From a virus: 24,304 nucleotides of DNA. A program made the position numbers and the translations under genes. The stretch spans positions 1-24,304 of the IMG/VR virus record IMGVR_UViG_3300047177_000043. One strand, 5' to 3'. Positions 9,896 through 23,647 of the stretch are shown here, one piece after another (position 1 is the stretch's first letter; each line of letters opens with the position of its first letter). The notes below the pieces were generated by a model that worked only from the letters and a program-made list of their open reading frames with translations, was not told the origin of the DNA and did no database searches.

Positions 9896-10141
9896 ATGAG
9901 CTGGGAAATTATTGTAGGATTGGTATTGGTCATTGGAACGATTTTAGGTGTGACGATTCCTTTGCACCAAACAATTAGAGAAGACATGAGATTTGCTCAA
10001 TCAAGATCAGATGCACAAATAGCAGCTATCAGTCAAAATATCTTAGCTATTCACCAAGAGATGAAAGATTTTCATAGTAGATTATGCCGTATAGAAGAGC
10101 GTTCTAGAGGTCTCAAGATGGATGAGACAAAGGAGAAATAA
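9896..10141 (+). CDS. Small membrane / coiled-coil protein, DFHSRLC tail
   Basis: An 81-residue protein. One membrane span covers residues about 4-24 and contains LVIGTILGVTIPLH, nearly the same as in the minus-strand proteins at 22854-23087, 15589-15771 and 15773-15967. A polar helix follows (REDMRFAQSRSDAQIAAISQNILAIHQEM), then the family tail DFHSRLCRIEERSRG. It stands one base before the next family member at 10143, and its C-terminal codons supply AAGGAG for that gene. Its own ribosome site is TAGG. The single cysteine in the tail could form a disulfide in an oligomer, but this is only inference. Confidence 0.7.
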   Translation: MSWEIIVGLVLVIGTILGVTIPLHQTIREDMRFAQSRSDAQIAAISQNILAIHQEMKDFHSRLCRIEERSRGLKMDETKEK

Positions 10142-10142
10142 T

Positions 10143-10409
10143 ATGAATTTAGAAATTATTGTTGCTATTATGGGTAGCACAATTGCAATTGTGGGCGTAG
10201 TGGTCGCTATGATGTTTTGGGTTCGTCAAGAAGCTAATGCATTAAGAGCCGAAGCAAAAGAAGATAGAAAAGATTTTATACAAATAAGCAGAAATTTAGA
10301 AAATTATGTTTATGCAATTCAATCTGAAATGAAAGATTTTCATAATAGACTGTGCATTATTGAGGAGCGTTCAAGAGGTCTAAAATCAGAAGAAACAAAA
10401 AAGAAATAG
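10143..10409 (+). CDS. Small membrane / coiled-coil protein, DFHNRLC tail
   Basis: An 88-residue protein when started at ATG 10143, which is preferred to ATG 10122 because AAGGAG lies 8 bases before it and the paralogues begin with a short polar stub before the span. The hydrophobic segment (EIIVAIMGSTIAIVGVVVAMMFWV) covers residues about 3-26. A charged helix (EANALRAEAKEDRKDFIQISRNLEN) precedes the tail DFHNRLCIIEERSRG. The C-terminus LKSEETKKK matches LKMDETKEK of the 9896 gene, so these two adjacent copies arose by duplication or have been homogenised. Function unknown. Confidence 0.7.
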   Translation: MNLEIIVAIMGSTIAIVGVVVAMMFWVRQEANALRAEAKEDRKDFIQISRNLENYVYAIQSEMKDFHNRLCIIEERSRGLKSEETKKK

Positions 10410-10412
10410 CGT

Positions 10413-10883
10413 ATGTCTACTAATACCCAAATTTTATCGGCTAATCAGTTACCTATTTCAATTGAAATTCCCTCTGATATAGATCACATGCAAAGTGTTC
10501 TTACTGAACATTTGTCTAGAGTAAGTAACACTGTAAATTCCAAAGAGGGTTCCCTCTATGATTTGCAAGAAATTTCTAATTTCCAACAATTCTTTACTCA
10601 AGGAAATCCTCAAATCTATAGAGATGGGTATCGATTTACTTTTGATTTAGTCGCCATGAACGGGGGAAACATAGCTGGAAGTGCTACAGTTTCTTTTCCT
10701 CACAACATTTCCAACATCATAAATGCAACGCGTATCTATGCTTCTTGTACAAGTACAACTCCGGAATATTTTTCTGTGATGTATCCAGAAGCAAAACTCA
10801 ATGCAACTCAGATTGTTTTTACCAACCCTCAAACATCGCCTTTGAGTGGTTGCATATTCATAGCTGAATATACAAAAACATGA
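10413..10883 (+). CDS. Small virion structural protein
   Basis: A 156-residue soluble protein with no membrane segment. The N-terminus (LSANQLPISIEIPSDIDHMQSVLTEHLSRVSNTVNSKEGSLYDLQEI) is partly helical, like a trimerising attachment region, and is followed by a beta-rich part (YRDGYRFTFDLVAMNGGNIAGSATVSF...FIAEYTKT). Such a layout is frequent in small phage tail or fibre-associated proteins. It lies between two small membrane/coiled-coil genes, so the block alternates virion and accessory genes. No family recognised; a tail or needle-associated role is an inference from position between the large tail protein and the ejection proteins. Confidence 0.5.
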   Translation: MSTNTQILSANQLPISIEIPSDIDHMQSVLTEHLSRVSNTVNSKEGSLYDLQEISNFQQFFTQGNPQIYRDGYRFTFDLVAMNGGNIAGSATVSFPHNISNIINATRIYASCTSTTPEYFSVMYPEAKLNATQIVFTNPQTSPLSGCIFIAEYTKT

Positions 10884-10913
10884 TAAAATATCTCCTAAAA
10901 TAGGGATAAAATT

Positions 10914-11255
10914 ATGGATTGGTCAAATGTTATAATTTCTATATGCACTGTTTCTACAACTGTGCTGGCTATTACATCTATTTTAGGGAAAAAATTTGAT
11001 AAAATAGATGCTAGATTTGAAAAAATAGATGCTAGATTTGAAAAAATAGATGCTAGATTTGATAAAATTGAGACGGAATTAAAGTCTAATGGAGAAAGAT
11101 TGGCGCGTGTAGAAGAAAAGTTAATTAGTTTAGAGAGTCGTTTAGAAGAAAAAATAAATGGATTGGATAGAAGGGTAAGCCATCTTGAAACTATGCTTAG
11201 CATGCTCGTTTCCTTTCTGTTAGATCATAAAAAAACTGGAACAGAAAAAATGTAA
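10914..11255 (+). CDS. Small membrane protein with long KIDARFE coiled coil
   Basis: A 113-residue protein. A membrane span (residues about 5-25, NVIISICTVSTTVLAITSILG) is followed by a long heptad region from about residue 26 to 90: KIDARFE, KIDARFE, KIDARFD, KIETELK, then ERLARVEEKLISLESRLEEKINGLDRRVSHLETM. The C-terminal end LSMLVSFLL is again hydrophobic. The first repeats are exact 21-base DNA units, so this coil has grown by slippage or unequal exchange. It lacks the DFHGRLC tail and is the longest member of the family here. The KID-based coil is reminiscent of small repeat-bearing membrane proteins in other bacteria, but no homology is claimed. Confidence 0.65.
   Translation: MDWSNVIISICTVSTTVLAITSILGKKFDKIDARFEKIDARFEKIDARFDKIETELKSNGERLARVEEKLISLESRLEEKINGLDRRVSHLETMLSMLVSFLLDHKKTGTEKM
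11001..11063 (+). repeat. Three 21-base tandem repeats (KIDARFE units)
   Basis: Units at 11001-11021, 11022-11042 and 11043-11063 are the same except for the last base, and each encodes one coiled-coil heptad. The near-identity points to recent expansion. Confidence 0.9.
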
Positions 11256-11268
11256 ATCTATTTTACAT
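11250..11268. promoter_or_regulatory. Degenerate copy of the 19-base palindrome
   Basis: ATGTAAATCTATTTTACAT has the same length and outer arms (ATGTAAA/TTTACAT) as the two sites at 11406 and 16771, with a poorer centre. It overlaps the stop codon of the 10914 gene and lies about 140 bases before the perfect copy. The stretch 11269-11403 contains no gene; a weak hairpin (AATTTAACC with GGTTGATTT around 11299-11331) followed by a few T bases could be a terminator for the preceding genes, at low confidence. Confidence 0.4.
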
Positions 11269-11403
11269 AAGAATGTCCAAAAAATCTAAGACTTGCAATT
11301 TAACCACCTTTAAAGGCTCAAGGTTGATTTTTATCTAATCTGGGCTACCTTCATATACCTCAATCTATTTAATTTAATCTACGGCCTCTCTACAAAGAGC
11401 AAA

Positions 11404-11426
11404 AAATGTAAAACCGTTTTACATTT
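11404..11426. promoter_or_regulatory. Palindromic operator-like site before the ejection genes
   Basis: The core ATGTAAAAC-C-GTTTTACAT (11406-11424) is a perfect 9+1+9 inverted repeat, extended by AA/TT on both sides. It lies about 40 bases upstream of ATG 11464. The right arm contains TTTACA, which may double as a weak -35 element. The same palindrome precedes the fibre cluster, so a shared regulator is likely. A dimeric helix-turn-helix protein would fit the size; the regulator is not in this window as far as I can see. Confidence 0.55.
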
Positions 11427-11463
11427 GTAATCTTATTTATGATGATGGGAAAAAAGAGGTTAT

Positions 11464-12072
11464 ATGTCTCCAAGCGTAATTATGGGGCTTCTTTCTGCTG
11501 CTGGAATCGGTGGAAGCATTTTTGGTAAGGGATCTAAGGATAAATTTGGTCGTATAGATACTCTGACTCAAGGTCAGCATCAAGGTCTAGATGATATTTT
11601 ATCGCAAATCAGAGGCGGAAGAGCTTCTCAAAATTATGATCTTTCCCAGGATTATCTAAGTAAGCTTTTAAGTGGTGATGAGGGAGTTTACGATCAATTT
11701 GCTGCTCCTTATATGCAAAACTTTAAAGAGAATATCCTTCCAGGGATTGCAGAACAATTTGGAGGTGCTGGAGGAGGACTTGGGGGTGCAAATGAGAGTT
11801 CTGCATTTGGTCAAGCCCTTGGAGGAGCTGGGGGTAATTTACAAGCGCAATTAGCCAATCTATTTGCTAATCTTAGACAGCAGTCAGCTGGACAAGCGAT
11901 GGGTCAATATAATTCGTTGGCAGGTCTAGGACTCGGCACTCAAGCCTTTCAACCCTATTATCAACAAGGCCAACCTGGGTTTGGGAGTCATCTCGCTTCC
12001 GGTATTGGAGGAGGATTTGGAAAGGCTTTTGGGCAAGTAGGCGGAAAGGCTTTTTCGGATTGGTTGGGTTAA
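11464..12072 (+). CDS. Internal virion / DNA ejection protein, first
   Basis: A 202-residue protein with a glycine- and alanine-rich composition. The N-terminus is hydrophobic (VIMGLLSAAGIGGSIFG). The centre includes ILPGIAEQFGGAGGGLGGANESSAFGQALGGAGGNLQAQLA, a pattern familiar from podovirus internal proteins that are ejected with the DNA, and the C-terminus is again Gly-rich (GSHLASGIGGGFGKAFGQVGGKAF). It begins an operon of three such genes, spaced by 18 bases and then overlapping. The start is supported by AGAGG 4 bases before the ATG. Role in building the channel across the cell envelope is inferred from composition and order. Confidence 0.65.
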   Translation: MSPSVIMGLLSAAGIGGSIFGKGSKDKFGRIDTLTQGQHQGLDDILSQIRGGRASQNYDLSQDYLSKLLSGDEGVYDQFAAPYMQNFKENILPGIAEQFGGAGGGLGGANESSAFGQALGGAGGNLQAQLANLFANLRQQSAGQAMGQYNSLAGLGLGTQAFQPYYQQGQPGFGSHLASGIGGGFGKAFGQVGGKAFSDWLG

Positions 12073-12090
12073 TATTTAAATAGGCTTTAT

Positions 12091-13215
12091 ATGGTACATA
12101 TTCTTCCTCCTAAACTCAATATTGGCTCTATGATCGGGCAGAGTTTAGGTCAAGGTTTAGCGGGCGGCTTTGAAAAAGGAATGGATCAAAGCCTATCTGA
12201 TCAATTAGATGAAAAAAAACATCAGAGAGCTTTAGAACAGATAAGAGCAAAAGAACAAGCTAAATATAAGGAAAGAACAGATCAATTTTTACGTGCTCGA
12301 GAAGAAACAGAAAAAAGAAGGTCTCTTTCTGAATCTTTAGAAAACAATCCTGAAAATCCTAAAGGACTTACTCAAAATGAAAATAGACCTATTACAAATG
12401 ATGACGTAGAAAATGCTTATTTATTAGCTAAGGAATATGGAGAGGTTAAACAAAAACAAAAAGAATCTCAAGATCGTAAATTTGAAGCAGACAGAAAATT
12501 TCATTCCACAAGATCAAACAAATTTTTAGATGAAGTAAACACTTCTTTTAAAGGAATCCCTGAAAGAGAAGTAGCCTTGAATGCTGCTGAAGCGGCAATT
12601 ACTTCCGGTCAAATGAATAATGCTTTAGGAGGAGACTTTTGGGCTAATGCTTTAGGTATTCCTTCATTGAGAGATGTAAGCGGGGCCGTATTAAATACGG
12701 CGGCAAAAATTAATTTAATAGGATCTCTCAGTCGCGTTTCTGCTAGACCAAATCAGTTTTTAGAGAAACAAATTGCTGATTCTTTTGCTAAAGCTGGACA
12801 AACTAAAGAAACCAATTTAGCTCAAGTAAGACTAGGTAAATCCATCTTGAATATGGAAAAGAATTTTAATGAAGTTACAGATAATTTAGCAGATCAATAC
12901 AGACAGTCTCTGGGATATGTGCCAGAAAATATAGATTCTATCGTTAGGAAGCAGGTAGAGCCTTTTAATAAAAGAGAAATGGAGAGAACTTCTTTAGATA
13001 TTCAAAGATTAACAGAAAAACAACTGGGTTCTGCTAAACTTAATTCTGTTCAAAAAGTATATCCTGGAACTCCTCTTACCCCTGAAAAATATAGAGTCTT
13101 GTTTAATAAAGCGTCGGGAAGCACAGAAGAAGAGAGAGATAAAAAGGCTATTGAGACAGCTAAAAAAGCTGGGTATAGAATTTTAGACCTTAACGCTCTT
13201 GGCTATAATGAGTAG
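12091..13215 (+). CDS. Internal virion / DNA ejection protein, second
   Basis: A 374-residue protein. Residues 1-35 are Gly-rich and weakly hydrophobic (IGSMIGQSLGQGLAGGFEKGMDQSLS), followed by a highly charged helix (residues about 38-85, EKKHQRALEQIRAKEQAKYKERTDQF). The remaining part is largely helical, with a hydrophobic patch near residues 190-215 (FWANALGIPSLRDVSGAVLNTAAKINLIGSL). This combination of coiled coil and amphipathic helices fits the second ejection protein of a podovirus. Its last codons overlap the start of the third gene by 8 bases, indicating coupled translation. No lytic enzyme motif is visible. Confidence 0.6.
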   Translation: MVHILPPKLNIGSMIGQSLGQGLAGGFEKGMDQSLSDQLDEKKHQRALEQIRAKEQAKYKERTDQFLRAREETEKRRSLSESLENNPENPKGLTQNENRPITNDDVENAYLLAKEYGEVKQKQKESQDRKFEADRKFHSTRSNKFLDEVNTSFKGIPEREVALNAAEAAITSGQMNNALGGDFWANALGIPSLRDVSGAVLNTAAKINLIGSLSRVSARPNQFLEKQIADSFAKAGQTKETNLAQVRLGKSILNMEKNFNEVTDNLADQYRQSLGYVPENIDSIVRKQVEPFNKREMERTSLDIQRLTEKQLGSAKLNSVQKVYPGTPLTPEKYRVLFNKASGSTEEERDKKAIETAKKAGYRILDLNALGYNE

Positions 13216-14626
13216 TTATTTTAAAAACCTATATTCTAATCCAAAAGAAGAAGAAAATCTAGAAAACTTTTCTTCATATTATTCTGCTAACAAAAAATCT
13301 ACAGATAAAGATATTCAAGAAGAAAATCTAAAAAATGATTTAGATTCTAATGATGAGTCTCTGGGATCTAAGATTATTCGTAATACAGCCCGATTAGGAA
13401 CAGATGTGGCTCAAACTGTTGTTGCATCCCCAGGAGAAAACCTTGCTTTTGCTAATTTAGCCGCTGGACCTATTTATGAGGGAATTTCAGGAAAAAAATC
13501 TTCTCCTTATGAAGAAATGGGAATATCTAAAATACTTCCTACCAATGAGCAATTACAAAAGAATCGTCCCGATTATCTTCTTCCTAAAAATGAAACAGAG
13601 GCCTTTTTCAGTGATTCCGTTAAAAATATTACAAATCTTTTAAATCCCATAGACTGGGCTGGAAAATATAAGTTTGCAAAAAAAGGAGTGAATCTAGCAG
13701 CCCAATTAGGAAAAAAGTTATTTAAAGCTACTGCATTAGAGAGTGGTGGAGAGTTGGTAAAACAGGGAGCTGAAAAGTTAGGAGTAGATCAAGAAACTTC
13801 TAAATATTTGAAGTTTGGTTCTGTTGTTTTATCCTCAATTCTTTCTGAAGGGGGCTTAAATGCCGCTAAAAAACTATCAAATTCTCTTTACGATCAAGCA
13901 AGAAAACTTAGATCTCCTTCTTCTTTTGTTAATGCAAATAAGTTAAAGACAAAGTTGGTTAATTTAAAGAAATCTCTTGAATCAGGCGGTGTTTCTCCGG
14001 CATCATCTTCTTCTCTTAAAAAAGTAGATGAGATGCTGGAAAATATCAATAAAGGACAAGGAAGAATTTCTATAGAGGATTTAGAAAATTTTAAGAAGAA
14101 AATTAATATTGATCGTGGAAATCTTTATCAAGAATTACCAGGACGATCGAATAAAGCAGGAAGAAAAACCTTAAAATCTAATATTGATAGTGTCTCTTCA
14201 ATAGTAGATGAAGGGTTAGATGAATATGGAAAATTAAATCCTAAATGGTATAAAAAATATAAAGAAGCGAATGAGGTTTTTTCTTCTATCGAAAGTAGTA
14301 AAACAATCTCGAGAAATCTTGGTCATTTAGCAAAAAAATACTCTCCGCATTCCCTTTCTGGAGTTATTTTAGCGGGAGCTACAAATCCAGAAATGATCAT
14401 TCCAACGGGAATTGGCTCTATTGCTACTTTTGCAGGATTAAAAGTTGCAGAATTAGGAGCTAGATTTATGAAAAGCCCTAGTTTAAGAAAACACTATATG
14501 AATATTTTAGAGGGAGCTGCTACAGGAAATTCTCAGTTTGTAGTTTACAATCTCAACTTACTCAAGAAAGCGATTGAAGATGATCCTTCTCTGTTAGAAG
14601 AAAAAAATGATGCTAATCCTCATTAA
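13208..14626 (+). CDS. Internal virion / DNA ejection protein, third
   Basis: A 472-residue protein started at ATG 13208; a TTG at 13199 is possible but less likely. The first 60 residues are charged and disordered-looking. Hydrophobic Ala/Gly segments appear near residues 70-100 (DVAQTVVASPGENLAFANLAAGPIYEG) and 395-420 (SGVILAGATNPEMIIPTGIGSIATFAGL), with a charged helical centre (VNANKLKTKLVNLKKSLES). Segments of this kind are expected of proteins that insert in the host envelope during DNA ejection. It ends the operon and its 3' end overlaps the convergent 33-residue minus-strand gene. No transglycosylase or other catalytic motif was seen. Confidence 0.55.
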   Translation: MSSYFKNLYSNPKEEENLENFSSYYSANKKSTDKDIQEENLKNDLDSNDESLGSKIIRNTARLGTDVAQTVVASPGENLAFANLAAGPIYEGISGKKSSPYEEMGISKILPTNEQLQKNRPDYLLPKNETEAFFSDSVKNITNLLNPIDWAGKYKFAKKGVNLAAQLGKKLFKATALESGGELVKQGAEKLGVDQETSKYLKFGSVVLSSILSEGGLNAAKKLSNSLYDQARKLRSPSSFVNANKLKTKLVNLKKSLESGGVSPASSSSLKKVDEMLENINKGQGRISIEDLENFKKKINIDRGNLYQELPGRSNKAGRKTLKSNIDSVSSIVDEGLDEYGKLNPKWYKKYKEANEVFSSIESSKTISRNLGHLAKKYSPHSLSGVILAGATNPEMIIPTGIGSIATFAGLKVAELGARFMKSPSLRKHYMNILEGAATGNSQFVVYNLNLLKKAIEDDPSLLEEKNDANPH

Positions 14627-14714
14627 AATGGTCACCCTTCCCACTAAAATATTCACCTATTTCATTGAAAATTCCAAAAAATAGTAGACCAAGAGCTAAA
14701 CAAAATACCCACAC
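14613..14714 (-). CDS. Tiny hydrophobic protein (33 residues, GTG start)
   Basis: A 33-residue open frame from GTG 14714: VWVF-CLALGLLFFGIF forms a hydrophobic stretch, then NEIGEYFSGKGDHFNED is polar. GAGGAG in the end of the preceding gene lies about 9 bases upstream, a good ribosome site. It is the last gene of the minus-strand array, two bases from the stop of the 51-residue gene, and overlaps the 3' end of the third ejection gene by 14 bases. It lacks a coiled coil. Small size and GTG start make the call uncertain. Confidence 0.35.
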   Translation of the reverse strand: MWVFCLALGLLFFGIFNEIGEYFSGKGDHFNED

Positions 14715-14715
14715 T

Positions 14716-14871
14716 TTAAATTCTCCTCATTTCTTCCATAATTCCCTCTATTTTTGATAATCTTTCTCGAGTTTGCATCATATAAGTCATAAGAGTAAAA
14801 AAGCCGATTAGGATTGCTATATAGACTCCAATCTTTTCCCAATTGATGTCTTTCCAGTTAATGTTTGACAT
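14716..14871 (-). CDS. Small membrane / coiled-coil protein (51 residues)
   Basis: Residues 1-14 are polar (MSNINWKDINWEKI). A membrane span follows (GVYIAILIGFFTLMTYMM), then a short coil, QTRERLSKIEGIMEEMRRI. RLSKIEGIMEE resembles the ends of the 19-240 and 16234-16404 products (IEGVVWR, IEGAIWR). GGAG lies about 8 bases before the ATG, inside the overlapping 25-residue frame. Gene order and design argue for a real gene of the same family, minus the DFHGRLC tail. Function unknown. Confidence 0.55.
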   Translation of the reverse strand: MSNINWKDINWEKIGVYIAILIGFFTLMTYMMQTRERLSKIEGIMEEMRRI

Positions 14872-14935
14872 TAGGTAAGCTCCAATAGATTCCCCACATT
14901 AAAACACTGAGACAAAAAATAGTGATCCAGAACAT
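14858..14935 (-). CDS. Tiny hydrophobic peptide (25 residues)
   Basis: MFWITIFCLSVLMWGIYWSL followed by PNVKH makes a single hydrophobic helix with a short tail. The conserved codons at the end of the 14938 gene give GAGGGA upstream of this ATG, just as they do for the true family members. Its end overlaps the start of the 51-residue gene by 14 bases. It may be a small membrane peptide or just a translated leader coupling the two genes. Confidence 0.3.
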   Translation of the reverse strand: MFWITIFCLSVLMWGIYWSLPNVKH

Positions 14936-14937
14936 GG

Positions 14938-15171
14938 TTATTTCCCTCTGTTTCTTTCTTCTATAGCACAGAGTCTTCCATGAAAATCTCTAATTTCATG
15001 TAATAGCGCCTGCTGAAATTGTTTTGAATCTGCATTTATTGCTTCAATAGAAGCTTGCATTCCTTTTAATGTACTTTCTGTCTTATTATCTAAGTGCATA
15101 TATAGGGCAATAATGGTTCCTAGGTTAGCTAACACAACTGCTAGCACGGTTAAAATCTGATTCCAATCCAT
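14938..15171 (-). CDS. DFHGRLC-family membrane protein, array copy 5 (mosaic)
   Basis: A 77-residue protein. The span (residues about 6-25, ILTVLAVVLANLGTIIALYM) is followed by HLDNKTESTLKGMQASIEAI, the same as in the copy at 15387 apart from one residue, and then ADSKQFQQALLHEIRDFHGRLC, the same as in the copy at 15173. It is therefore a hybrid of its neighbours. The tail reads DFHGRLCAIEERNRGK. The start follows the stop of the preceding copy by one base, with the ribosome site (AGGGGAAGG) lying in that copy's last codons. Confidence 0.75.
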   Translation of the reverse strand: MDWNQILTVLAVVLANLGTIIALYMHLDNKTESTLKGMQASIEAINADSKQFQQALLHEIRDFHGRLCAIEERNRGK

Positions 15172-15172
15172 C

Positions 15173-15385
15173 TTACCTTCCCCTGTTTCTCTCTTCTATA
15201 GCACAGAGTCTTCCATGAAAGTCTCTAATTTCATGCAAAAGTGCTTGCTGAAACTGTTTTGAATCGGCTCTCATAGCCTCTAGTGTAGTTTCTGTCTTAT
15301 TATCTAAGTGCATATATAAAGCGACTATAGTGCCTAAGTTTGCCAAAATTACTGCTAATACTGTTAAAATTTGGCTCCAATCCAT
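15173..15385 (-). CDS. DFHGRLC-family membrane protein, array copy 4
   Basis: A 70-residue protein with the span ILTVLAVILANLGTIVALYM, a short coil (HLDNKTETTLEAMRADSKQF), then QQALLHEIRDFHGRLC and an AIEERNRGR ending. Synonymous and conservative changes separate its N-terminal half from copies 3 and 5, whereas its C-terminal half matches copy 5. The polypeptide is too small for an enzyme; one membrane anchor plus a cytoplasmic or periplasmic helix suggests an oligomeric membrane protein. Confidence 0.75.
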   Translation of the reverse strand: MDWSQILTVLAVILANLGTIVALYMHLDNKTETTLEAMRADSKQFQQALLHEIRDFHGRLCAIEERNRGR

Positions 15386-15386
15386 C

Positions 15387-15587
15387 TTATTTCCCTCTAT
15401 TTCTTTCTTCTATAGCACAGAGTCTTCCATGAAAGTCTTTCATTTCTGCATGAATTGCTTCAATAGAAGCTTGCATCCCTTTTAATGTACTTTCTGTCTT
15501 ATTATCTAGTTGCATATATAGGGCAATAATGGTTCCTAGGTTAGCTAACACAACTGCTAATACTGTTAAAATCTGATTCCAATCCAT
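15387..15587 (-). CDS. DFHGRLC-family membrane protein, array copy 3
   Basis: A 66-residue protein. The span is the same as in copy 5 (ILTVLAVVLANLGTIIALYM), followed by QLDNKTESTLKGMQASIEAI. It then joins HAEMKDFHGRLCAIEERNRGK, which is the C-terminal form of copies 1 and 2 and not of copies 4 and 5. The crossover lies near residue 47. This copy is thus the other reciprocal combination seen in the array. Confidence 0.75.
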   Translation of the reverse strand: MDWNQILTVLAVVLANLGTIIALYMQLDNKTESTLKGMQASIEAIHAEMKDFHGRLCAIEERNRGK

Positions 15588-15588
15588 G

Positions 15589-15771
15589 TTATTTTCCTCT
15601 ATTTCTCTCTTCTATAGCACACAATCTTCCATGAAAGTCTTTCATTTCAGAATGAATAGCTGCAATTTGTTGTTGAGTTTGTAAATGCAAAGGAATAACT
15701 ACGCCTAGGATAGTTCCTAAAAATAAAACCATAGATGCTAAAACTTCCCAATGAAATTGTTTTTTGTCCAT
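15589..15771 (-). CDS. DFHGRLC-family membrane protein, array copy 2
   Basis: A 60-residue protein starting MDKKQFHWEV. The span (LASMVLFLGTILGVVIPLHL) contains GTILGVxIPLH, shared with proteins at 9896-10141 and 22854-23087 outside the array. The coil is short (QTQQQIAAIHSEM) before DFHGRLCAIEERNRGK. It is the shortest member with the complete tail, so it may mark the minimal functional unit: anchor, about three helical turns, tail. Confidence 0.75.
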   Translation of the reverse strand: MDKKQFHWEVLASMVLFLGTILGVVIPLHLQTQQQIAAIHSEMKDFHGRLCAIEERNRGK

Positions 15772-15772
15772 G

Positions 15773-15967
15773 TTATTTCCCTCTATTGCGTTCTTCTATA
15801 GCGCAAAGCCTTCCATGGAAGTCTTTCATTTCAGCATGAATCTCTGCGTGAATGGTAGAAATTTGTTGTTGAGTTTGTAAATGCAAAGGAATAACTACGC
15901 CTAAGATAGTACCTAAAAATAAAACCATAGATGCCAAAACTTCCCAATGAAATTGCCTTTTTTCCAT
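15773..15967 (-). CDS. DFHGRLC-family membrane protein, array copy 1
   Basis: A 64-residue protein, nearly the same as copy 2 in its span (LASMVLFLGTILGVVIPLHL) and beginning MEKRQFHWEV. It differs by a four-residue internal insertion in the coil, where IHAE is doubled (STIHAEIHAEMKDFH). The 12-base duplication within the coil shows length change by slippage or unequal exchange. The stop is followed by one base and the next ATG. Confidence 0.75.
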   Translation of the reverse strand: MEKRQFHWEVLASMVLFLGTILGVVIPLHLQTQQQISTIHAEIHAEMKDFHGRLCAIEERNRGK

Positions 15968-15968
15968 C

Positions 15969-16232
15969 TTATTTTCCTTTTCCTTCTAAATATCTTTGCA
16001 TCATCTGGGTATATTTCTCTTCCAAAGAACACAACCTCCCGTGAAAGAATTTCAGCTCGGACCTAAATTCTTTAGTCTCTTCTCTGAACTCTTTCATTTC
16101 TTCCGAAACCTTATCAAATTTAGCATCTGAATCTTGTTTATAGGATTGTAGTTGCTCTTTAGTCTCCCTTCTAAAGTACCAGCAGCAACCAACCGATGTT
16201 CCTATGATGCTTACGACTTGTAGCCATTCCAT
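15969..16232 (-). CDS. Membrane / coiled-coil protein with FFHGRLC tail
   Basis: An 87-residue protein from ATG 16232 (MEWLQVVSIIG), preferred over ATG 16250 because CGGAG lies 8 bases upstream and paralogues begin with MEW or MDW. The span is short (LQVVSIIGTSVGCCWYF, residues about 3-19). The coil is the longest of the minus-strand block (EQLQSYKQDSDAKFDKVSEEMKEF...). The tail is FFHGRLCSLEEKYTQMMQRY followed by LEGKGK. It shares design with the tandem copies but is more diverged, and probably represents the older form from which the block began. Confidence 0.7.
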   Translation of the reverse strand: MEWLQVVSIIGTSVGCCWYFRRETKEQLQSYKQDSDAKFDKVSEEMKEFREETKEFRSELKFFHGRLCSLEEKYTQMMQRYLEGKGK

Positions 16233-16233
16233 C

Positions 16234-16404
16234 TTATTTCTCCGTCCCATTTCCTGGCCAATTTCTCCAGATAGCCCCTTCTATACGCGCTACTCTTTCG
16301 CTAAGAGATTCAATTTTATTTGAAAGTCTATCCATTCTCATCATCATGTAACCAAATCCACCGACTATAAGTCCTATCAAAGACCAAAATTGGTAATCGT
16401 TCAT
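16234..16404 (-). CDS. Small membrane / coiled-coil protein (56 residues)
   Basis: MNDYQFWS is followed by a span LIGLIVGGFGYMMM, a basic turn (RMDR) and a coil LSNKIESLSERVARIEGAIW, then RNWPGNGTEK. The RIEGAIWRNW end resembles the product at 19-240 (NIEGVVWRVW) and partly the 51-residue product at 14716-14871. The stop is one base from ATG 16232 of the next gene, and its last codons (ACGGAG) provide that gene's ribosome site. It is the first gene after the candidate promoter at 16429-16434. Confidence 0.6.
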   Translation of the reverse strand: MNDYQFWSLIGLIVGGFGYMMMRMDRLSNKIESLSERVARIEGAIWRNWPGNGTEK

Positions 16405-16428
16405 ATTATTCCCTATTATTGATCTTTT

Positions 16429-16434
16429 ATCATA
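16429..16434 (-). promoter_or_regulatory. Candidate extended -10 promoter for the minus-strand array
   Basis: On the minus strand TGCTATGAT carries an extended -10 element (TGnTATgAT). The -35 region 17 bases upstream (TTTTAT) is weak. It lies 25 bases before ATG 16404 and could drive all genes down to 14613. Confidence 0.45.
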
Positions 16435-16484
16435 GCAAAATTGCCTAATTAATAAAATGCGAATATAAACTTTAAATCGTTTTT

Positions 16485-16703
16485 TTATTTAAAAAATTTT
16501 ATTTTAGATTTTTTATTTTCTAATTGAATAATTCTATCTGCCAGATTCTCTACTATATCGAGTAGTAGGTTGTAAGACTTCTCAAGTTCTCCATGTCTAG
16601 CAAAAAGAGCCCTTCTCATAGAGGATTGCTCTTCTTTTAATTTAGCAATACTCCACTCTGTAGCTATGTCATCTTGACCAAAAAAATCTAATTGATGAGC
16701 CAT
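16485..16703 (-). CDS. Small soluble helical protein
   Basis: A 72-residue protein without a membrane span: MAHQLDFFGQDDIATEWSIAKLKEEQSSMRRALFARHGELEKSYNLLLDIVENLADRIIQLENKKSK. The sequence after residue 17 is a continuous predicted helix with heptad spacing of leucine/isoleucine, so it may form a coiled coil. It has a strong ribosome site (GGGAG) 6 bases before the ATG. It is separated by about 80 bases from the membrane protein array and divergent from the fibre cluster. It may be a soluble partner of the membrane proteins, which is speculation from position. Confidence 0.55.
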   Translation of the reverse strand: MAHQLDFFGQDDIATEWSIAKLKEEQSSMRRALFARHGELEKSYNLLLDIVENLADRIIQLENKKSKIKFFK

Positions 16704-16770
16704 ATTTTCTCCCTAAATAGGATAAGATTTTACCATATCTCACCTTTAGATCTCTTATAAATTTTGCAAA

Positions 16771-16789
16771 ATGTAAAACAGTTTTACAT
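16771..16789. promoter_or_regulatory. Palindromic operator-like site between divergent blocks
   Basis: ATGTAAAACAGTTTTACAT is a perfect 9+1+9 inverted repeat that matches the core of the site at 11406-11424 except for the centre base. It lies about 55 bases upstream of ATG 16845 on the plus strand and about 67 bases upstream of ATG 16703 on the minus strand, so one bound regulator could control both. Confidence 0.6.
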
Positions 16790-16844
16790 AGCCCTTTATA
16801 TTCTTCTAATTATAGTGAGGTAAATCATCGAAGATAGGAAGAGT

Positions 16845-18047
16845 ATGGGATCTACAAAATTACAGAGAGTCATTAGTGTTTCGAATACAACCGTTGAAGT
16901 TCTCCCTCCTCCTGTCCTAGCAAATAGAGCTCCTCTTACAACTGATTACCAATATCCTAATGGACAGCAATGGATTAACTATTCAGTTTCTCCACCGATA
17001 ATTAGTGAATACACAGGAAAAGGAATATGGATTGATATTTCTGGAACAAGTGCTATTAATACTTTAGAAGGCAATTCTGGGGGGTTTGTTAGTCCTGATG
17101 GTTCTGGCAATCTTCATGTAATCGGAGATGGTACAACAGCAACTGTTGTTGGCAATCCAACGACTAATACCTTGACTATCTCTTCGGGAGGATCGGTAGC
17201 TACGAGCTATGTTGAAGATACGGGAAGTGCTCTTCCTTCTATAGGTATATTAAAAATATTAGGAGGGACTGGAATCTCTACTTCTGGTACCGGCAATACT
17301 GTTACGGTTTCTTCTAATGCAACGGTAGCTACGAGCTATGTTGAAGATACGGGAACTGCTGTGCCTTTTAGTGGAATTTTAAATATATTAGGAGCCTCGG
17401 GTGTTACCACATCTGGATCTGGAAATACTGTAACAATATCTCCAGGATCTTCGATAGCTACAAGTTATGTTGAAAATACAGGAAGCGCAACGCCTTTTTC
17501 TAATGTATTAAATATATTAGGTGGAACAGGTATTTTAACTTCTGGAACAGGCAATAGTATAACAATTTCTTCCACTTCTACCGGATCTCCGATTCAACAA
17601 GTGAGAACTTTTTTAGCAGGAAGATTCCCTTTAACAATTAATGCTCAAAATATTGTAAATGTTCCTCAGAGTACAGATGGTGCGCAAATCATGTCTGTAG
17701 CTATTACTCCTATTTCATCCAGTAGTATTCTGGAAGTACGTATTATAGCCCAAATTGGACAGACTTCAGGAAACTATTACAATGCTATTTTAAGTATTTT
17801 TCGAGATTCTGACACGAGTGCTAGTTTGGCTTCATCTTGTACTTCACCTGAGTCACAAATAGTTTTAAATGGATTTATTGCAGCTAACACAACCTCTCCC
17901 ATAACGATTGCTGCTAGGATAGGAGTAAATGCACTCTACTCAGGGGCACAGCTGGCAATTATAATAAATGGAAATCTTACTGCTGCTTATTTCGGAGGAG
18001 GGTCTGTTTGCAACACTTGCATGAGCGTAACCGAATGGCCTTCATAA
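16845..18047 (+). CDS. Tail fibre-like protein with triple 43-residue repeat
   Basis: A 400-residue protein. Residues 1-65 (KLQRVISV...LANRAPLTTDYQYPNGQQWIN...GKGIWIDISG) form an attachment module also found at the start of the 18268 gene. Residues about 118-246 are three 43-residue units, ATSYVEDTGSA..(I/V)LNILGG(T/A)G...SGNTVTISS, typical of fibre shafts built from repeated beta elements. The C-terminal part from about 255 (RTFLAGRFPLTINAQNIVNVPQSTDGAQIMSVAITP...) is beta-rich and likely a tip domain of its own type; it lacks the cap shared by the next four genes. The gene ends at a strong terminator and starts after the palindrome. Confidence 0.7.
   Translation: MGSTKLQRVISVSNTTVEVLPPPVLANRAPLTTDYQYPNGQQWINYSVSPPIISEYTGKGIWIDISGTSAINTLEGNSGGFVSPDGSGNLHVIGDGTTATVVGNPTTNTLTISSGGSVATSYVEDTGSALPSIGILKILGGTGISTSGTGNTVTVSSNATVATSYVEDTGTAVPFSGILNILGASGVTTSGSGNTVTISPGSSIATSYVENTGSATPFSNVLNILGGTGILTSGTGNSITISSTSTGSPIQQVRTFLAGRFPLTINAQNIVNVPQSTDGAQIMSVAITPISSSSILEVRIIAQIGQTSGNYYNAILSIFRDSDTSASLASSCTSPESQIVLNGFIAANTTSPITIAARIGVNALYSGAQLAIIINGNLTAAYFGGGSVCNTCMSVTEWPS
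17196..17582 (+). repeat. Three 129-base tandem repeats in the fibre gene
   Basis: Units begin at 17196, 17325 and 17454. The DNA GTAGCTACGAGCTATGTTGA is conserved at the start of the first two, and the third is more diverged (ATAGCTACAAGTTATGTTGA). Confidence 0.9.
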
Positions 18048-18115
18048 TCTTCTTTGAACTTAAAAAAATATTTGATATGAAGAGGACGTAAACTCCCTAA
18101 GTTTGTTAATAGATG

Positions 18116-18150
18116 AAGAGCTCTCAAAAAAAAATGAGAGCTCTTTTTTA
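18116..18150 (+). terminator. Strong rho-independent terminator after the first fibre gene
   Basis: AAGAGCTCTCA 18116-18126 pairs perfectly with TGAGAGCTCTT 18135-18145 around an A-rich loop, followed by a run of T. The stem is symmetric with A-rich loop, so it could work in both directions, but no minus-strand gene ends here. Confidence 0.9.
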
Positions 18151-18209
18151 TTTATCTCTTTTATCCAATTACTTTATTTTTCTCTCTAAGAAAATAAAAT
18201 AAAAAACTA

Positions 18210-18238
18210 TTGACTGTGTGATTTTTATTCATCAAATT
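18210..18238 (+). promoter_or_regulatory. Weak candidate promoter for the second fibre block
   Basis: TTGACT 18210-18215 is a good -35 match; the hexamer 17 bases later (CAAATT) is a poor -10. The strong terminator just upstream means a promoter is needed between 18150 and 18268. Apart from these elements I see nothing in 18048-18267. Confidence 0.25.
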
Positions 18239-18267
18239 GAAATTTAATAAGAAAACTAAGGTCTTTC

Positions 18268-18939: not shown

Positions 18940-18942
18940 AAT

Positions 18943-20151: not shown

Positions 20152-20152
20152 T

Positions 20153-20431
20153 TTATTTTGATTTATGTCGTTCTTCAACGCCGAATATTCTCATGTGGAT
20201 GACTTTCATTTCTCCTCTAATTTCTGCATCCTGCCTTTCTAGACGTCCATGGAAATCTCTATTTTCCTGCTCCATCGATCTCATAATGTCGATCATTTCA
20301 CGCCTAAGTTGTATATTTTGCTCGTCAGATCTTCTTGCGTCTGCTCTAGCTTCTGATCTTGACCAAAGCCACATAGGAAGAATTACAGCTAGATTCCCAA
20401 AAACTAAAACAAAAAGTTGTGCCCATTCCAT
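20153..20431 (-). CDS. Membrane / coiled-coil protein between fibre genes
   Basis: A 92-residue protein on the strand opposite the fibres. It begins MEWAQLFVLVFGNLAVILPMWLWSRSE with a span at residues about 4-23; MEW and the WLWSRSEAR turn resemble the 15969-16232 product. The coil is charged (ARADARRSDEQNIQLRREMIDIMRSM), and DFHGRLERQDAEI keeps the DFHGRL signature but lacks the cysteine. An added second half, HMRIFGVEERHKSK, restores the VEER ending. The gene starts about 32 bases from the divergent 20464 start and ends right at the stop of the 18943 gene. Confidence 0.65.
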   Translation of the reverse strand: MEWAQLFVLVFGNLAVILPMWLWSRSEARADARRSDEQNIQLRREMIDIMRSMEQENRDFHGRLERQDAEIRGEMKVIHMRIFGVEERHKSK

Positions 20432-20463
20432 AATTAATCCTATTTTAGGGAGTGCATTCTAAC

Positions 20464-21771
20464 ATGCCAATAAACAATAGCTCAAATTTATTTGCAACTA
20501 CTCCCTATATTGTAAGTGCAATAGCGTCTCAAGGCTCCTACACCACAATTCAGGCAGCGATTACAGCGGCATCAACAGCTGGTGGCGGAGTAGTCTATGT
20601 AAAACCAGGTACTTATTTTGAAAATCTTTCTATAGCTAATAATGTAACATTAGCAGGTACAAATGTAGGAATAGATGGAGTAAGTTTAGGAGTATCGAAC
20701 ACTATAATTTTTGGAAATCATACATTCCCTGCCGGAGCTTCGGTCACATCTATAGCTAATCTAACATTTGGATGCCCTGCTTCTGGTTCTTCTCCGATTT
20801 TTACGGTAGCTCCAAGTACAGGACAATCTTCAATAAGCTTTTCTCAATGCGTATTAGACGATACTTTAGGAAGTGGGACACCAACTTCAACGATCTCTTC
20901 TGCTCCTACAGGATCTGGAAATGTTTTATTACAGATTACAGATAGTGTCCTGACTGCCGGAGCCATTAACCTATCTTTAGGTGCTAATAGCACTGCAAAC
21001 GTCTCTTATTGCTCTATCAATGATGTGTCAGGAACTACTCCGTGCGTTCTATTGAGTTCAGCTACTGCAATTTTAAATAGTTCTTACAATTCTTATAACT
21101 CTGATGTATTTGCTAGCATTCGTTTCACTGCTAATGGACTAGTAACTTCTTTATATGACAGTTTCAACTCCCAAGACCCTTCCGGATTCTATATTAGTTC
21201 TTCTGGATCCTTCGGAAGATTTGCTTTTGCAGATGCGATTGCCATAAGTACAGCTACAGGAATCGATCCCCAAATCACTAAGACTCTCTATTCTCAACTG
21301 CCTGATGTCTATCCAACAACAAATGGTCAAGTGGTTATTGGTCGCACTGGAAATACACCAGTGGCAACCACTTTAACAGCTGGTACAGGGGTATCGATCA
21401 CTAATGGGTCGGGAATAATTTCAATTGCTACCTCAGTAGCTCCAGTTACTTGGAATATAATTAATGTCAGTTTAACGATGACCTCAAATAACGGATATAT
21501 TGTTATATCAGGAATTGGAAGCAACTTAACTCTTCCCACTACTTCAGCGGTTGGAGATCGCCTCATCATTGTAGCCAACGATGTAGCTACTATATTTTCT
21601 ATAAGGCAGGCAGCTGGTCAAAGAGTGAGATTTGGAAGCTTTTTAAGTACAACTGGAACAGGCGGATCTATTACCTCAGTAGATGATGGTGCTTCTTTGA
21701 CTTTAGTATGTACTACAGCAAATACAAATTGGTCGGTATACGACTCTTTAGGAAACTTTACAATTATTTAG
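20464..21771 (+). CDS. Beta-helix tail spike-like protein, second copy
   Basis: A 435-residue protein from ATG 20464 (MPINNSSNLFATTPYIVSAI), which aligns with the start of the 18943 product (MTLATTSTYNFGSYPVIVSTI); GTG 20452 is less likely. SYTTIQAAITAASTAGGGVV with YVKPGTYFENLSIANNVTLAG is a clear beta-helix opening. Rungs such as SSISFSQCVLDDT and LLQITDSVLTAGAINLSL follow, then a fibre linker NGQVVIGRTGNTPVATTLTA. The C-terminal cap from about residue 332 (VSLTMTSNNGYIVISG...LPTTSAVGDRLIIV...QAAGQRVRFG...SLGNFTII) is shared with three other fibres. It seems to have diverged greatly from the 18943 product in its middle. Confidence 0.65.
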   Translation: MPINNSSNLFATTPYIVSAIASQGSYTTIQAAITAASTAGGGVVYVKPGTYFENLSIANNVTLAGTNVGIDGVSLGVSNTIIFGNHTFPAGASVTSIANLTFGCPASGSSPIFTVAPSTGQSSISFSQCVLDDTLGSGTPTSTISSAPTGSGNVLLQITDSVLTAGAINLSLGANSTANVSYCSINDVSGTTPCVLLSSATAILNSSYNSYNSDVFASIRFTANGLVTSLYDSFNSQDPSGFYISSSGSFGRFAFADAIAISTATGIDPQITKTLYSQLPDVYPTTNGQVVIGRTGNTPVATTLTAGTGVSITNGSGIISIATSVAPVTWNIINVSLTMTSNNGYIVISGIGSNLTLPTTSAVGDRLIIVANDVATIFSIRQAAGQRVRFGSFLSTTGTGGSITSVDDGASLTLVCTTANTNWSVYDSLGNFTII

Positions 21772-21778
21772 GAGAGAT

Positions 21779-22867
21779 ATGGCTTATTCTAACTCAACAA
21801 ACAATATCAATATCAACACTCCTATCAGAAGCGTCGCTGCTTCTGCAACGGCTGCTCTTACCGATTATATCATCGAGGTTACTTCTGTTGCTGCTGCTCG
21901 CACGATTACTCTTCCAGCTCCTTCTAGTAGCGGTTCAACTTCTACGGTAGGAAAAGTCTATATTGTAAAAAACACTTCAGGCGCTACGACAAATCCTATT
22001 ACGATTACTCCGACTTCAGGAACCATTGACGGAGCTGCTTCCCTTTCTATCGCTACTGCTTATGGATCTTATATAGTTTATAGCGATGGCACAAGCTGGT
22101 ATAGCGAAGCAGGAGCTTCTAACTTAACATTTCCAGTATCAGTACCTAACGGAGGTACAGGAGATTCTACTTTAACTAACCACGCGGTGCTCCTTGGACA
22201 AGGAACAAGCCCTGTTGCATTCGTAGGCCCAACCGCTACCTCAGGACAAGTGCTTCAAAGCGCAGGATCTTCCGCTGACCCTGCATTTTCTACTGCAACC
22301 TACCCATCTACCACGACTCTATCCCAGCTTCTATATAGCTCGGCAACTAATACAGTTGGAGGACTTGCAACGGCTAATAGTGCCTCTCTTGTCACTAACT
22401 CCACTGGAGTCCCAGCCTGGTCATCTACTATGACAAATGGACAGATGATTATAGGTAGTACGGGAGCAACACCTGTTTCTGCGACATTAACCGCGGGTGT
22501 TGGCATTTTTGTCACCAATGGAGCGGGTTCTGTAACAGTAGCTTCGATGCCCTACACTTCGATCACAGCTAACCAGACTCTTGCAGTATCTAATGGTTAT
22601 TTCGTGACTTCAGGTGCTCTCTCTTTAGCTTTACCAGCAACATCAGCAGTAGGAGATAAGATTGAATTGATCCTGACAGCAGGAACTTCTTGGACGATTA
22701 CACAAGCTTCAGGACAGCAAATTGTAATTGGCAATCAATCTACAACTTTAGGAGCTGGTGGATCTTTAGCATCAACAGCCACAGGAGATGCGGTAAGCTT
22801 AGTATGTAGTGCTGCAAACACTATATGGTATGTTAGATCTTCTATGGGGAATATTACGGTGACTTAA
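21779..22867 (+). CDS. Tail fibre-like protein with shared N- and C-terminal modules
   Basis: A 362-residue protein with a strong ribosome site (AGGAGAG). The N-terminal module (VAASATAALTDYIIEVTSVAAARTITLPAPSS...YIVKNTSG...TSGTIDGAASLSI) is paralogous to that of the 23654 product. The middle, NGGTGDSTLTNHAVLLGQGT and NGQMIIGSTGATPVSATLTA, is a linker type seen in many phage fibres; the second part also matches the 20464 product. The C-terminal cap (SNGYFVTSGALSLALPATSAVGDKIELI...ITQASGQQIVIGN...SSMGNITVT) is that of the preceding fibres. It therefore links the two module groups of the cluster. Its end overlaps the convergent gene at 22854. Confidence 0.65.
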   Translation: MAYSNSTNNININTPIRSVAASATAALTDYIIEVTSVAAARTITLPAPSSSGSTSTVGKVYIVKNTSGATTNPITITPTSGTIDGAASLSIATAYGSYIVYSDGTSWYSEAGASNLTFPVSVPNGGTGDSTLTNHAVLLGQGTSPVAFVGPTATSGQVLQSAGSSADPAFSTATYPSTTTLSQLLYSSATNTVGGLATANSASLVTNSTGVPAWSSTMTNGQMIIGSTGATPVSATLTAGVGIFVTNGAGSVTVASMPYTSITANQTLAVSNGYFVTSGALSLALPATSAVGDKIELILTAGTSWTITQASGQQIVIGNQSTTLGAGGSLASTATGDAVSLVCSAANTIWYVRSSMGNITVT

Positions 22868-23087
22868 TGTTTGAATTGTTTTTAGTTCGTTCTTCTACTA
22901 TGTGGCAGCGACCGCTTACTTCTCTCATTTCTCTATGGAATTGGTTCATATCTTGTCTTATTCCCTCCATAAAATTTTGCGTAGAATTTTGTAAAGACAT
23001 GTGTAGAGGAATAGTTACTCCTAGAATAGTGCCTATCACTAAGATGACTCCAACTAAAAATTCCCAATGTATCTTTTCCTTTTCCAT
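22854..23087 (-). CDS. Membrane / coiled-coil protein, GTILGV subgroup
   Basis: A 77-residue protein starting MEKEKIHWEF. The span FLVGVILVIGTILGVTIPLH (residues about 10-29) is almost the same as that of the 9896-10141 product on the plus strand 13 kb away. The coil is MSLQNSTQNFMEGIRQDMNQFH, and the tail is altered: REMREVSGRCHIVEERTKNN, where GRC and VEER remain but DFH is lost. The last codons (NIKSP) overlap the end of the 21779 gene by 14 bases, so the frame may have been extended into the neighbour after insertion. Confidence 0.65.
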   Translation of the reverse strand: MEKEKIHWEFLVGVILVIGTILGVTIPLHMSLQNSTQNFMEGIRQDMNQFHREMREVSGRCHIVEERTKNNSNIKSP

Positions 23088-23207
23088 GATATTTGAATCC
23101 TTTATAAAGAGAACAGAATAACAGAATGATGAATTTAAAAATATATAAATGTAAAATGTAATGTCCTCTCACTAATTATTTAAGGAGAGCAACAAGGAGA
23201 ATAAGAT

Positions 23208-23426
23208 ATGGAAAAGAAATCAGAAACTGGGATTGCGATCATATCGTGTTCAGCTGGTTCGGTCATAGCAATGCTAACAGCCATGATTGTGTTATTCACA
23301 CATTTAGACAGTAAAATGGAAAAAAGTATGGCAGAAGGCAGAGCCGAATTGAGACATCAAGATGAAAAATTGATTATGGTAATTAGGGAATTGAGAGATG
23401 AGATAAAGGATTCTAAAAAATCATAA
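23208..23426 (+). CDS. Membrane / coiled-coil protein, plus-strand pair member 1
   Basis: A 72-residue protein. The span (AIISCSAGSVIAMLTAMIVLFTHL, residues about 9-32) is followed by DSKMEKSMAEGRAELRHQDEKLIMVIRELRDEIKDSKKS. HLDSKMEKS resembles HLDNKTEST of the tandem array, but the ending is RELRDEIKDSK in place of DFHGRLC. A strong ribosome site AAGGAG lies about 9 bases before the ATG. It and the next gene form a pair with the same ending. Confidence 0.65.
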   Translation: MEKKSETGIAIISCSAGSVIAMLTAMIVLFTHLDSKMEKSMAEGRAELRHQDEKLIMVIRELRDEIKDSKKS

Positions 23427-23437
23427 GAAACACGAAT

Positions 23438-23647
23438 ATGGAAAATACATTAATAATTACTTTAATTGGTGCAATAGTAGCGAATATCGGGACGACCATT
23501 ATTCTGTTTATCCATGGGGATAATAAGCTTGAGGCGACAATACGGCATCAAGATAATAAACTTTCTCTTGCTATTGCAGAAGGTAGACGAGAACTAATAG
23601 AAGCAATTCGAGAAATTAGAGCAGAAATCAAAGACTCAAAACAGTAG
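23438..23647 (+). CDS. Membrane / coiled-coil protein, plus-strand pair member 2
   Basis: A 69-residue protein. The span is LIITLIGAIVANIGTTIILFI (residues about 5-25), then HGDNKLEATIRHQDNKLSLAIAEGRRELIEAIREIRAEIKDSKQ. VANIGTTI and DNKLEAT match the array pattern LANLGTII and DNKTEST, while the ending IKDSKQ matches the preceding gene. It ends six bases before the next fibre gene and its last codons lie near AGGGG, the ribosome site of that fibre. The start has only a weak ribosome site. Confidence 0.65.
   Translation: MENTLIITLIGAIVANIGTTIILFIHGDNKLEATIRHQDNKLSLAIAEGRRELIEAIREIRAEIKDSKQ

What the first reader, a model, noticed from the sequence alone, without database searches (positions are those of the whole stretch)
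9896..23647. A dispersed family of about 17 tiny membrane / coiled-coil proteins in one phage region
Seventeen short genes (19, 3182, 9896, 10143, 10914, 14716, 14938, 15173, 15387, 15589, 15773, 15969, 16234, 20153, 22854, 23208, 23438) encode one N-terminal span plus a coil. Eight end in a clear D/FFHxRLCxI/LEE tail and two more keep remnants. They occupy gaps between virion genes on both strands. Such multiplicity suggests a heteromeric membrane complex, a superinfection-exclusion or lysis-control set, or a mobile gene unit. No described system I know matches it.
Basis: partly seen in the sequence, partly recalled or inferred. Interest (0 to 1): 0.85.

Follow-up and report, generated by a model that had tools for sequence, protein, structure and literature searches.

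The report
Exclusion-like membrane proteins in chlamydial phages
A phage that probably infects environmental relatives of Chlamydia carries twelve copies of a tiny, previously undescribed membrane-protein gene, mostly in the genome slot where the well-studied phage P22 keeps its gene for shutting out rival phages, so the copies may act as a door-lock against second infections.

Summary
A profile trained without any window sequence finds 12 copies (E 5e-27 to 7e-6; no hit among 28,800 shuffled ORFs). The other five belong to other TM-plus-coil families or are single genes. The family is absent from cultivated phages, plasmids, PDB and curated libraries, but is common in uncultivated 35-42 kb podoviruses with a P22-like portal. 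Host evidence points to Chlamydiota. The modelled member is one long helix: membrane span, variable coil, and a nearly invariant C-terminal tail (EMKDFHGRLCAIEER) conserved as protein (synonymous codons vary freely; dN/dS 0.03-0.12). The genes are accessory (7 of 18 portal-selected relatives) and antisense to flanking virion genes (60 of 66 copies). Their main slot, between the gene-16-like gene and the tail-fibre genes, is where P22 has antisense sieA. The window is an outlier: 12 copies against a mean of 1.9. Best explanation: independently expressed morons for superinfection exclusion, analogous but not homologous to SieA. The moron part is strong (about 0.85); the exclusion mechanism is inferred (about 0.45). 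Co-variation with ejection genes was tested and not found. Rivals: other lysogenic conversion, lysis control.

The parts
9896..10141 (+). family member (81 aa), between virion genes c2 and c1, sense strand
   Evidence: E 3.6e-19; tail DFHSRLCRIEER
10143..10409 (+). family member (88 aa from ATG 10143; a longer frame starts at 10122), directly after 9896
   Evidence: E 3.5e-21; tail DFHNRLCIIEER
14613..16703 (-). antisense operon in the slot between the gene-16-like gene (13199-14626 +) and the first tail-fibre gene (16845 +); equivalent position to P22 sieA
   Evidence: P22 order
16485..16703 (-). first operon gene, 72 aa, soluble, not a family member
   Evidence: no Pfam above cutoff
16234..16404 (-). 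56 aa TM + short coil, not detected as family member
15969..16232 (-). family member (87 aa), tail FFHGRLCSLEEKYTQMMQR subtype
   Evidence: E 4.6e-15
15773..15967 (-). family member (64 aa), IPLH subtype
   Evidence: E 3.8e-19
15589..15771 (-). family member (60 aa), IPLH subtype; charge bias around the TM reversed
   Evidence: E 4e-17
15387..15587 (-). family member (66 aa); modelled as one helix, residues 3-63
   Evidence: E 4.7e-27; pLDDT 94.6
15173..15385 (-). family member (70 aa)
   Evidence: E 1.9e-25
14938..15171 (-). family member (77 aa)
   Evidence: E 6.8e-25
14858..14935 (-). 25 aa hydrophobic ORF (MFWITIFCLSVLMWGIYWSLPNVKH) right after 14938; status uncertain
   Evidence: sequence
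14716..14871 (-). 51 aa TM + coil, not detected as family member
14613..14714 (-). 33 aa hydrophobic ORF (GTG start), last of the operon; status uncertain
20153..20431 (-). family member (92 aa), tail remnant DFHGRLERQDAE, between two fibre genes, antisense
   Evidence: E 1.8e-21
22854..23087 (-). family member (77 aa), degenerate tail, antisense to fibre genes
   Evidence: E 4.2e-10
23208..23426 (+). divergent family member (72 aa), tail lost
   Evidence: E 6.6e-6
23438..23647 (+). divergent family member (69 aa), tail lost
   Evidence: E 8.9e-11
3182..3415 (+). c14 family TM + coil gene, inside an insert in the major capsid gene; not this family
10914..11255 (+). c48 TM + long coil gene; borderline to the family, treated as separate
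11464..14626 (+). three ORFs (c7, c35, c23) in the position of P22 ejection genes 7, 20, 16; neighbours, possible targets of exclusion by analogy
   Evidence: order; c23 vs P22 gp16 hhalign E 2.6e-4; c7 vs gp7 no match

Best explanation
The genes are morons: accessory, independently expressed genes inserted between virion genes of P22-like podoviruses that infect Chlamydiota. The most likely job is superinfection exclusion. Each copy makes a single-pass inner-membrane protein whose helix continues into a coil ending in a conserved tail, for most members predicted on the cytoplasmic side. Made from the resident phage, the proteins would oligomerise at the membrane and block the DNA-delivery conduit of an incoming related phage, as P22 SieA blocks the functions of gp16 and gp20. 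The constant tail would bind a shared partner (a host membrane component or an invariant conduit feature), while the variable span and coil would tune assembly or target range, which could favour many copies. Shown: family, tail conservation at protein level, slot, antisense orientation, accessory status, host link. Inferred: expression state, topology, oligomerisation, exclusion, target. I rate the moron part about 0.85 and the exclusion mechanism about 0.45.
For: Slot and strand: gene order of the relatives matches P22 (portal, scaffold, coat, tail/head genes, three ejection-position genes, then antisense cassette, then fibres), and the P22 record places sieA antisense right after gene 16 and before tailspike gene 9. 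All 29 cassettes scored in this slot are antisense; 60 of 66 assessable copies overall. P22-likeness: portal Pfam P22_portal E 2e-64; gp16-like neighbour E 2.6e-4. Moron criteria of PMC2629481 (variable, not morphogenetic, independently expressed): only 7 of 18 portal-selected relatives carry it; complete genome G185 has none; several c0-lacking relatives hold other antisense small genes in the slot; c0 divergence does not track virion genes. Some cassettes start with an HTH_17 regulator, reminiscent of regulators in the P22 region. SieA types also combine divergent membrane parts with a more conserved cytoplasmic motif (PMC10883804). Solitary copies sit among housekeeping genes on contigs of Chlamydiae MAGs, compatible with host use as protection.
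Against: No functional data. No homology to SieA (hhalign E 0.38), and SieA has several TM segments. c0 distances do not correlate with ejection-gene distances (rho 0.08, p 0.30), so no sign of lock-and-key pairing. A nearly invariant tail is not the usual signature of an arms-race interface. Some copies lie in early regions or in sense orientation inside the virion block. Temperate lifestyle is not shown: the phage contigs in Chlamydiota MAGs are stand-alone 36-41 kb contigs, not integrated prophages. Three window members have reversed charge bias around the TM (for 15589 and 22854; 15773 by sequence).
Confidence: 0.45

Rival explanations
1. Lysogenic-conversion or host-takeover membrane factors: the conserved tail binds a chlamydial inner-membrane or cytoplasmic protein and changes host physiology (division, envelope, growth inside the eukaryotic cell) without blocking phages.
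For: Accessory moron distribution, near-invariant tail suggesting one conserved partner, solitary chromosomal copies in Chlamydiae, copies in early regions.
Against: No specific evidence for any host target; the preferred slot is that of sieA, and the tandem expansion in one phage is not obviously explained.
Confidence: 0.3
2. Lysis control: holin-, antiholin- or spanin-like proteins adapted to hosts without a normal peptidoglycan sacculus.
For: Small TM + coil proteins; no recognisable endolysin among the Pfam hits listed for ten genomes (11 weaker families were not displayed); single weak PHROG match of one member to Rz-like spanin.
Against: Antisense to late genes in 60 of 66 copies; absent from 11 of 18 near-full-length relatives that must also lyse; six copies in one operon is unlike any lysis cassette I know; predicted tail mostly cytoplasmic, unlike spanins.
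Confidence: 0.12
3. Selfish or neutral gene family: copies spread by tandem duplication and recombination between phages with little benefit.
For: Variable copy number (1-6 in 40 relatives, mean 1.9; 12 here), independence from neighbours, degenerate members 22854, 23208, 23438.
Against: Strong purifying selection (dN/dS 0.03-0.12) and conserved tail across very diverged phages; no mobility genes seen with it.
Confidence: 0.08
4. Virion or DNA-delivery component: membrane proteins that help the phage's own ejection conduit or assembly.
For: Adjacent to ejection-position genes in the main slot.
Against: Accessory, antisense, no co-variation with ejection genes.
Confidence: 0.05

Closest known systems
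P22 sieA / ant-moron (immunity I) region (PMC10883804, PMC2629481, NC_002371)
   Same: Same slot between gene 16 and the tail fibre/spike gene, antisense, accessory, predicted inner-membrane protein, divergent types with a more conserved C-terminal cytoplasmic motif, regulators in the same region.
   Different: No sequence homology; single TM and 54-114 aa here against a 164-aa multi-TM protein; up to six tandem copies per cassette and copies at other sites; function untested.
HK97 gp15 and other small-membrane-protein exclusion morons (TP-J34 Ltp, Tuc2009 Sie2009, T4 Imm)
   Same: Membrane proteins acting at DNA injection, several encoded by morons (as cited in PMC10883804 and PMC11436027).
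   Different: Different phage types and hosts; no sequence link found; not multi-copy as far as I know (own knowledge).
Phage holin/antiholin and Rz spanin families
   Same: Short TM + coil architecture; one weak PHROG match to Rz-like spanin.
   Different: Antisense to late genes, accessory, predicted cytoplasmic tail, multi-copy.
phrog_1009 and phrog_1863 (unknown function)
   Same: Weak matches of several members (best E 1.7e-4 and 6.6e-5), similar TM + coil layout.
   Different: Too weak to claim homology; coiled-coil composition could explain it.

Membership tests
P22 SieA family | sequence homology to SieA | tested here: not met
   hhalign A3 vs P22 SieA: probability 0.2, E 0.38
P22 SieA family | location between gene 16 and tailspike region, antisense | tested here: met
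   29 of 29 scored slot cassettes antisense; P22 record
P22 SieA family | several transmembrane helices | tested here: not met
   one hydrophobic segment per protein
P22 SieA family | blocks DNA injection through gp16/gp20 | not testable with these tools
   needs infection assay; indirect test by co-variation was negative
moron (sensu PMC2629481) | variable presence among relatives with syntenic virion genes | tested here: met
   7 of 18 portal-selected relatives have it; slot content varies
moron (sensu PMC2629481) | usually independent expression | tested here: inconclusive
   antisense orientation requires its own promoter, but promoter scans were no better than shuffles
moron (sensu PMC2629481) | no role in morphogenesis or lysis | tested here: inconclusive
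   dispensable in most relatives; no direct test
lysis cassette (holin/endolysin/spanin) | co-transcribed with late genes, next to an endolysin | tested here: not met
   antisense; no endolysin among displayed Pfam hits
known anti-phage defence systems (PADLOC-DB) | match to a defence protein model | tested here: not met
   only weak coil-type matches

The most novel reading that the evidence does not exclude
A constant-tail, variable-head repertoire: tandem duplication and exchange generate many membrane-anchored proteins with different spans and coils but one invariant cytoplasmic tail that recruits the same host or phage partner, giving a single phage a multi-specific membrane barrier against many competitors in an obligate intracellular host.
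Probability: 0.15. Interest if true: 0.8.

Novelty: new variant of a known kind. Interest (0 to 1): 0.6.

Why it matters
Literature searches here found no description of tailed dsDNA phages of Chlamydiota. This work outlines a group of P22-like podoviruses of that phylum and a new accessory gene family in the P22 sieA slot. If the family excludes superinfection, the slot and strategy would be convergent across very distant hosts, with an unusual multi-copy solution. The single conserved tail with one nearly invariant cysteine gives a precise, testable handle on its partner, and solitary chromosomal copies in Chlamydiae would be candidate host-borne phage protection.

Tried and rejected
Curated families: Pfam, PHROGs, NCBIfam, PADLOC and PDB gave no convincing relative. 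Cultivated phages and plasmids: nothing significant (best E 4). Co-variation with ejection genes as support for exclusion: negative. Promoter/terminator consensus scans: no more than in shuffles. The palindrome TGTAAAACNGTTTTACA as a shared operator: present near the operon but almost absent from relatives. Homology of c7 to P22 gp7: none; PHROGs name none of the ejection-position proteins; the c23 model is too uncertain (pLDDT 61) for a fold search, so none was run. Ribbon-helix-helix regulators in c0-lacking slots: by eye only; Pfam supports one weakly (CopG, E 0.005), so not claimed. Structure search of the family model: a single helix would match anything, not run. One family of 17: rejected. 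The Thermoproteota hit (L091) is a 3.3 kb contig and only 1 of 234 genomes in that phylum has it; treated as likely mis-binning.
Full report
WHAT WAS CHECKED. The window is a 24,304-base linear IMG/VR record. An alignment shows ten with the tail or its remnants. To judge chance and membership without circularity I built a profile from 120 relatives, none from the window. It finds 12 window ORFs at E 4.7e-27 to 6.6e-6; 10914 is borderline; 28,800 shuffled ORFs gave no hit. So 12 of the 17 form a family (called c0 here); the others are separate TM-plus-coil genes (c14: 3182; c48: 10914) or unassigned (19, 14716, 16234).

ARE THEY GENES. In the antisense cluster the members follow each other with 1-nt gaps, and most starts carry a Shine-Dalgarno-like sequence, for operon members often formed by the end of the preceding gene. 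Across 132 distinct copies, 102 are followed by another start within -4 to +25 nt. Tandem copies show dN 0.026-0.091 against dS 0.22-1.76.

DISTRIBUTION. One scan of viral contigs gave 183 relatives and 79 loci. A genome scan gave five hits, four in Chlamydiae MAGs. In 40 related contigs there are 1-6 copies, mean 1.9. Contigs with terminal repeats, taken as complete genomes, have 2-4 (G001, G012, G018, G020, G031); the window's 12 in 24 kb is exceptional. These 40 were found through c0, so I made an independent sample through the portal: 7 of 18 near-full-length relatives have c0 and 11 have none. G185, a 39,969-base contig with a terminal repeat in a Chlamydiota MAG, has none. The family is therefore accessory. 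Cultivated phages and plasmids have no significant match.

HOST. Portal relatives occur in 9 of 234 Chlamydiota genomes (E 1e-58 or better) and c0 in 6 of 234, against 1 of 234 in a control phylum, that one being the genome through which the phylum was chosen. Three of the phage contigs are stand-alone at 36-41 kb, so host assignment rests on binning. Better, solitary c0 genes lie among housekeeping genes on Chlamydiae MAG contigs: next to aroB/aroDE-like genes (L093), near ribulose-phosphate epimerase, EF-P, AccB/AccC, DnaA and YidC-like genes (L094), and near an FtsY-like gene (L118). These gene names are my reading of the translations, not database hits. Chlamydiota as host is likely, not proven.

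PHAGE TYPE AND SLOT. The portal matches Pfam P22_portal at 2e-64 and P22 gp1 by hhalign E 5e-6. Gene order across ten relatives is conserved, and the cassette sits after the last of three ORFs in the position of P22 ejection genes 7-20-16 and before the fibre genes. The last of these, c23, matches P22 gp16 weakly (E 2.6e-4); c7 does not match gp7; PHROGs name none of them. The P22 record shows the same layout, with sieA antisense immediately after gene 16 and before tailspike gene 9. Of 66 copies with virion genes of one strand on both sides, 60 are antisense (binomial p 3e-12, but copies in one cassette are not independent); all 29 cassettes in the P22-like slot are antisense. Other insertion sites are portal/scaffold, scaffold/coat, c8/c3 and c2/c1. 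Six of the 29 cassettes hold c38, an HTH_17 protein. In several of ten c0-lacking relatives the slot still holds antisense small genes, some with TM segments and some with c38.

PROTEIN ANATOMY. In 102 distinct tails, H and L are invariant, D, C and E about 98%, R 95%, G 92%; arginine and leucine positions use all six codons and third-position diversity is 0.54 against 0.14 and 0.08 for positions 1 and 2. The conservation is at protein level. The conserved residues are not only on the coil core, which suggests a binding surface (inference). The span and coil vary widely. Most copies have a single cysteine, in the tail. AlphaFold gives one helix, residues 3-63, pLDDT 94.6. Positive charges follow the TM in 113 of 132 copies, predicting a cytoplasmic tail, but 15589 and 22854 show the reverse.

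HOW IT MAY WORK. Established knowledge: a moron is a usually independently expressed insertion in a phage operon, and in P22-like phages this slot is in rapid flux and holds sieA with regulators (PMC2629481). SieA is an inner-membrane protein, sufficient for exclusion, and escape mutations lie in genes 16 and 20; its divergent types share a more conserved cytoplasmic C-terminal motif (PMC10883804). By analogy, c0 proteins would sit in the inner membrane of the resident phage's host and interfere with the incoming conduit. Shown here: family, slot, strand, accessory status, conservation. Inferred: expression, topology, oligomers, target, exclusion. A direct computational test, co-variation of c0 with ejection-gene divergence in 20 genomes, was negative (rho 0.08, p 0.30), as it was with other virion genes. 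This fits independent exchange but gives no support for specific pairing.

RIVALS. A host-takeover or conversion role explains the invariant tail and chromosomal copies equally well. Lysis is weakened by strand and absence in most relatives, though no endolysin was found among displayed hits. A selfish family is weakened by strong purifying selection.

KNOWN OR NEW. It works most like P22 SieA in position and layout but is not a SieA: sequence homology and multi-TM structure were tested and not met. I file it as a new variant of a known kind, exclusion-type membrane morons, with function unproven.

Noticed in passing
1434-3642: The major capsid gene is split relative to an intact 315-aa relative: coding pieces at 1434-1676, 1712-1777, about 2486-3034 and about 3550-3639. 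One insert (about 708 nt) holds an antisense homing-endonuclease-like ORF (1823-2290), another (about 515 nt) holds the c14 gene 3182. Rfam found no known intron. Capsid genes are also split in G001, G007, G011, G012, G014.
   Followed up: partly
1677-1711: A 35-nt frame-shifting insert inside the capsid coding sequence; bypassing, part of an intron, or an assembly error are all open.
   Followed up: no
11407-11423, 16772-16788, 11251-11267: Perfect palindrome TGTAAAACNGTTTTACA twice plus a 2-mismatch copy (0.29 expected); one lies between the antisense operon and the divergent fibre gene, one upstream of the c7 gene. Nearly absent from relatives.
   Followed up: partly
17166-17552: Three tandem 129-nt repeats (71-73% identical) inside the fibre gene 16845-18047.
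   Followed up: no
L113 5177-5833 (G001): ParA-like ATPase in some relatives, about 50% identical to plasmid proteins; with terminal repeats on the contigs this suggests possible phage-plasmids.
   Followed up: partly
15589-15771, 15773-15967, 22854-23087: IPLH-subtype members have positive charges before rather than after the membrane span, so their topology may be opposite to the others (15773 judged from its sequence).
   Followed up: no
ten related genomes (L095-L114): No recognisable endolysin among the displayed Pfam hits; how these phages leave a host with little peptidoglycan is unclear.
   Followed up: partly
L093, L094, L118: Solitary family genes among housekeeping genes on Chlamydiae MAG contigs, without nearby phage genes in the stretch read.
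   Followed up: partly
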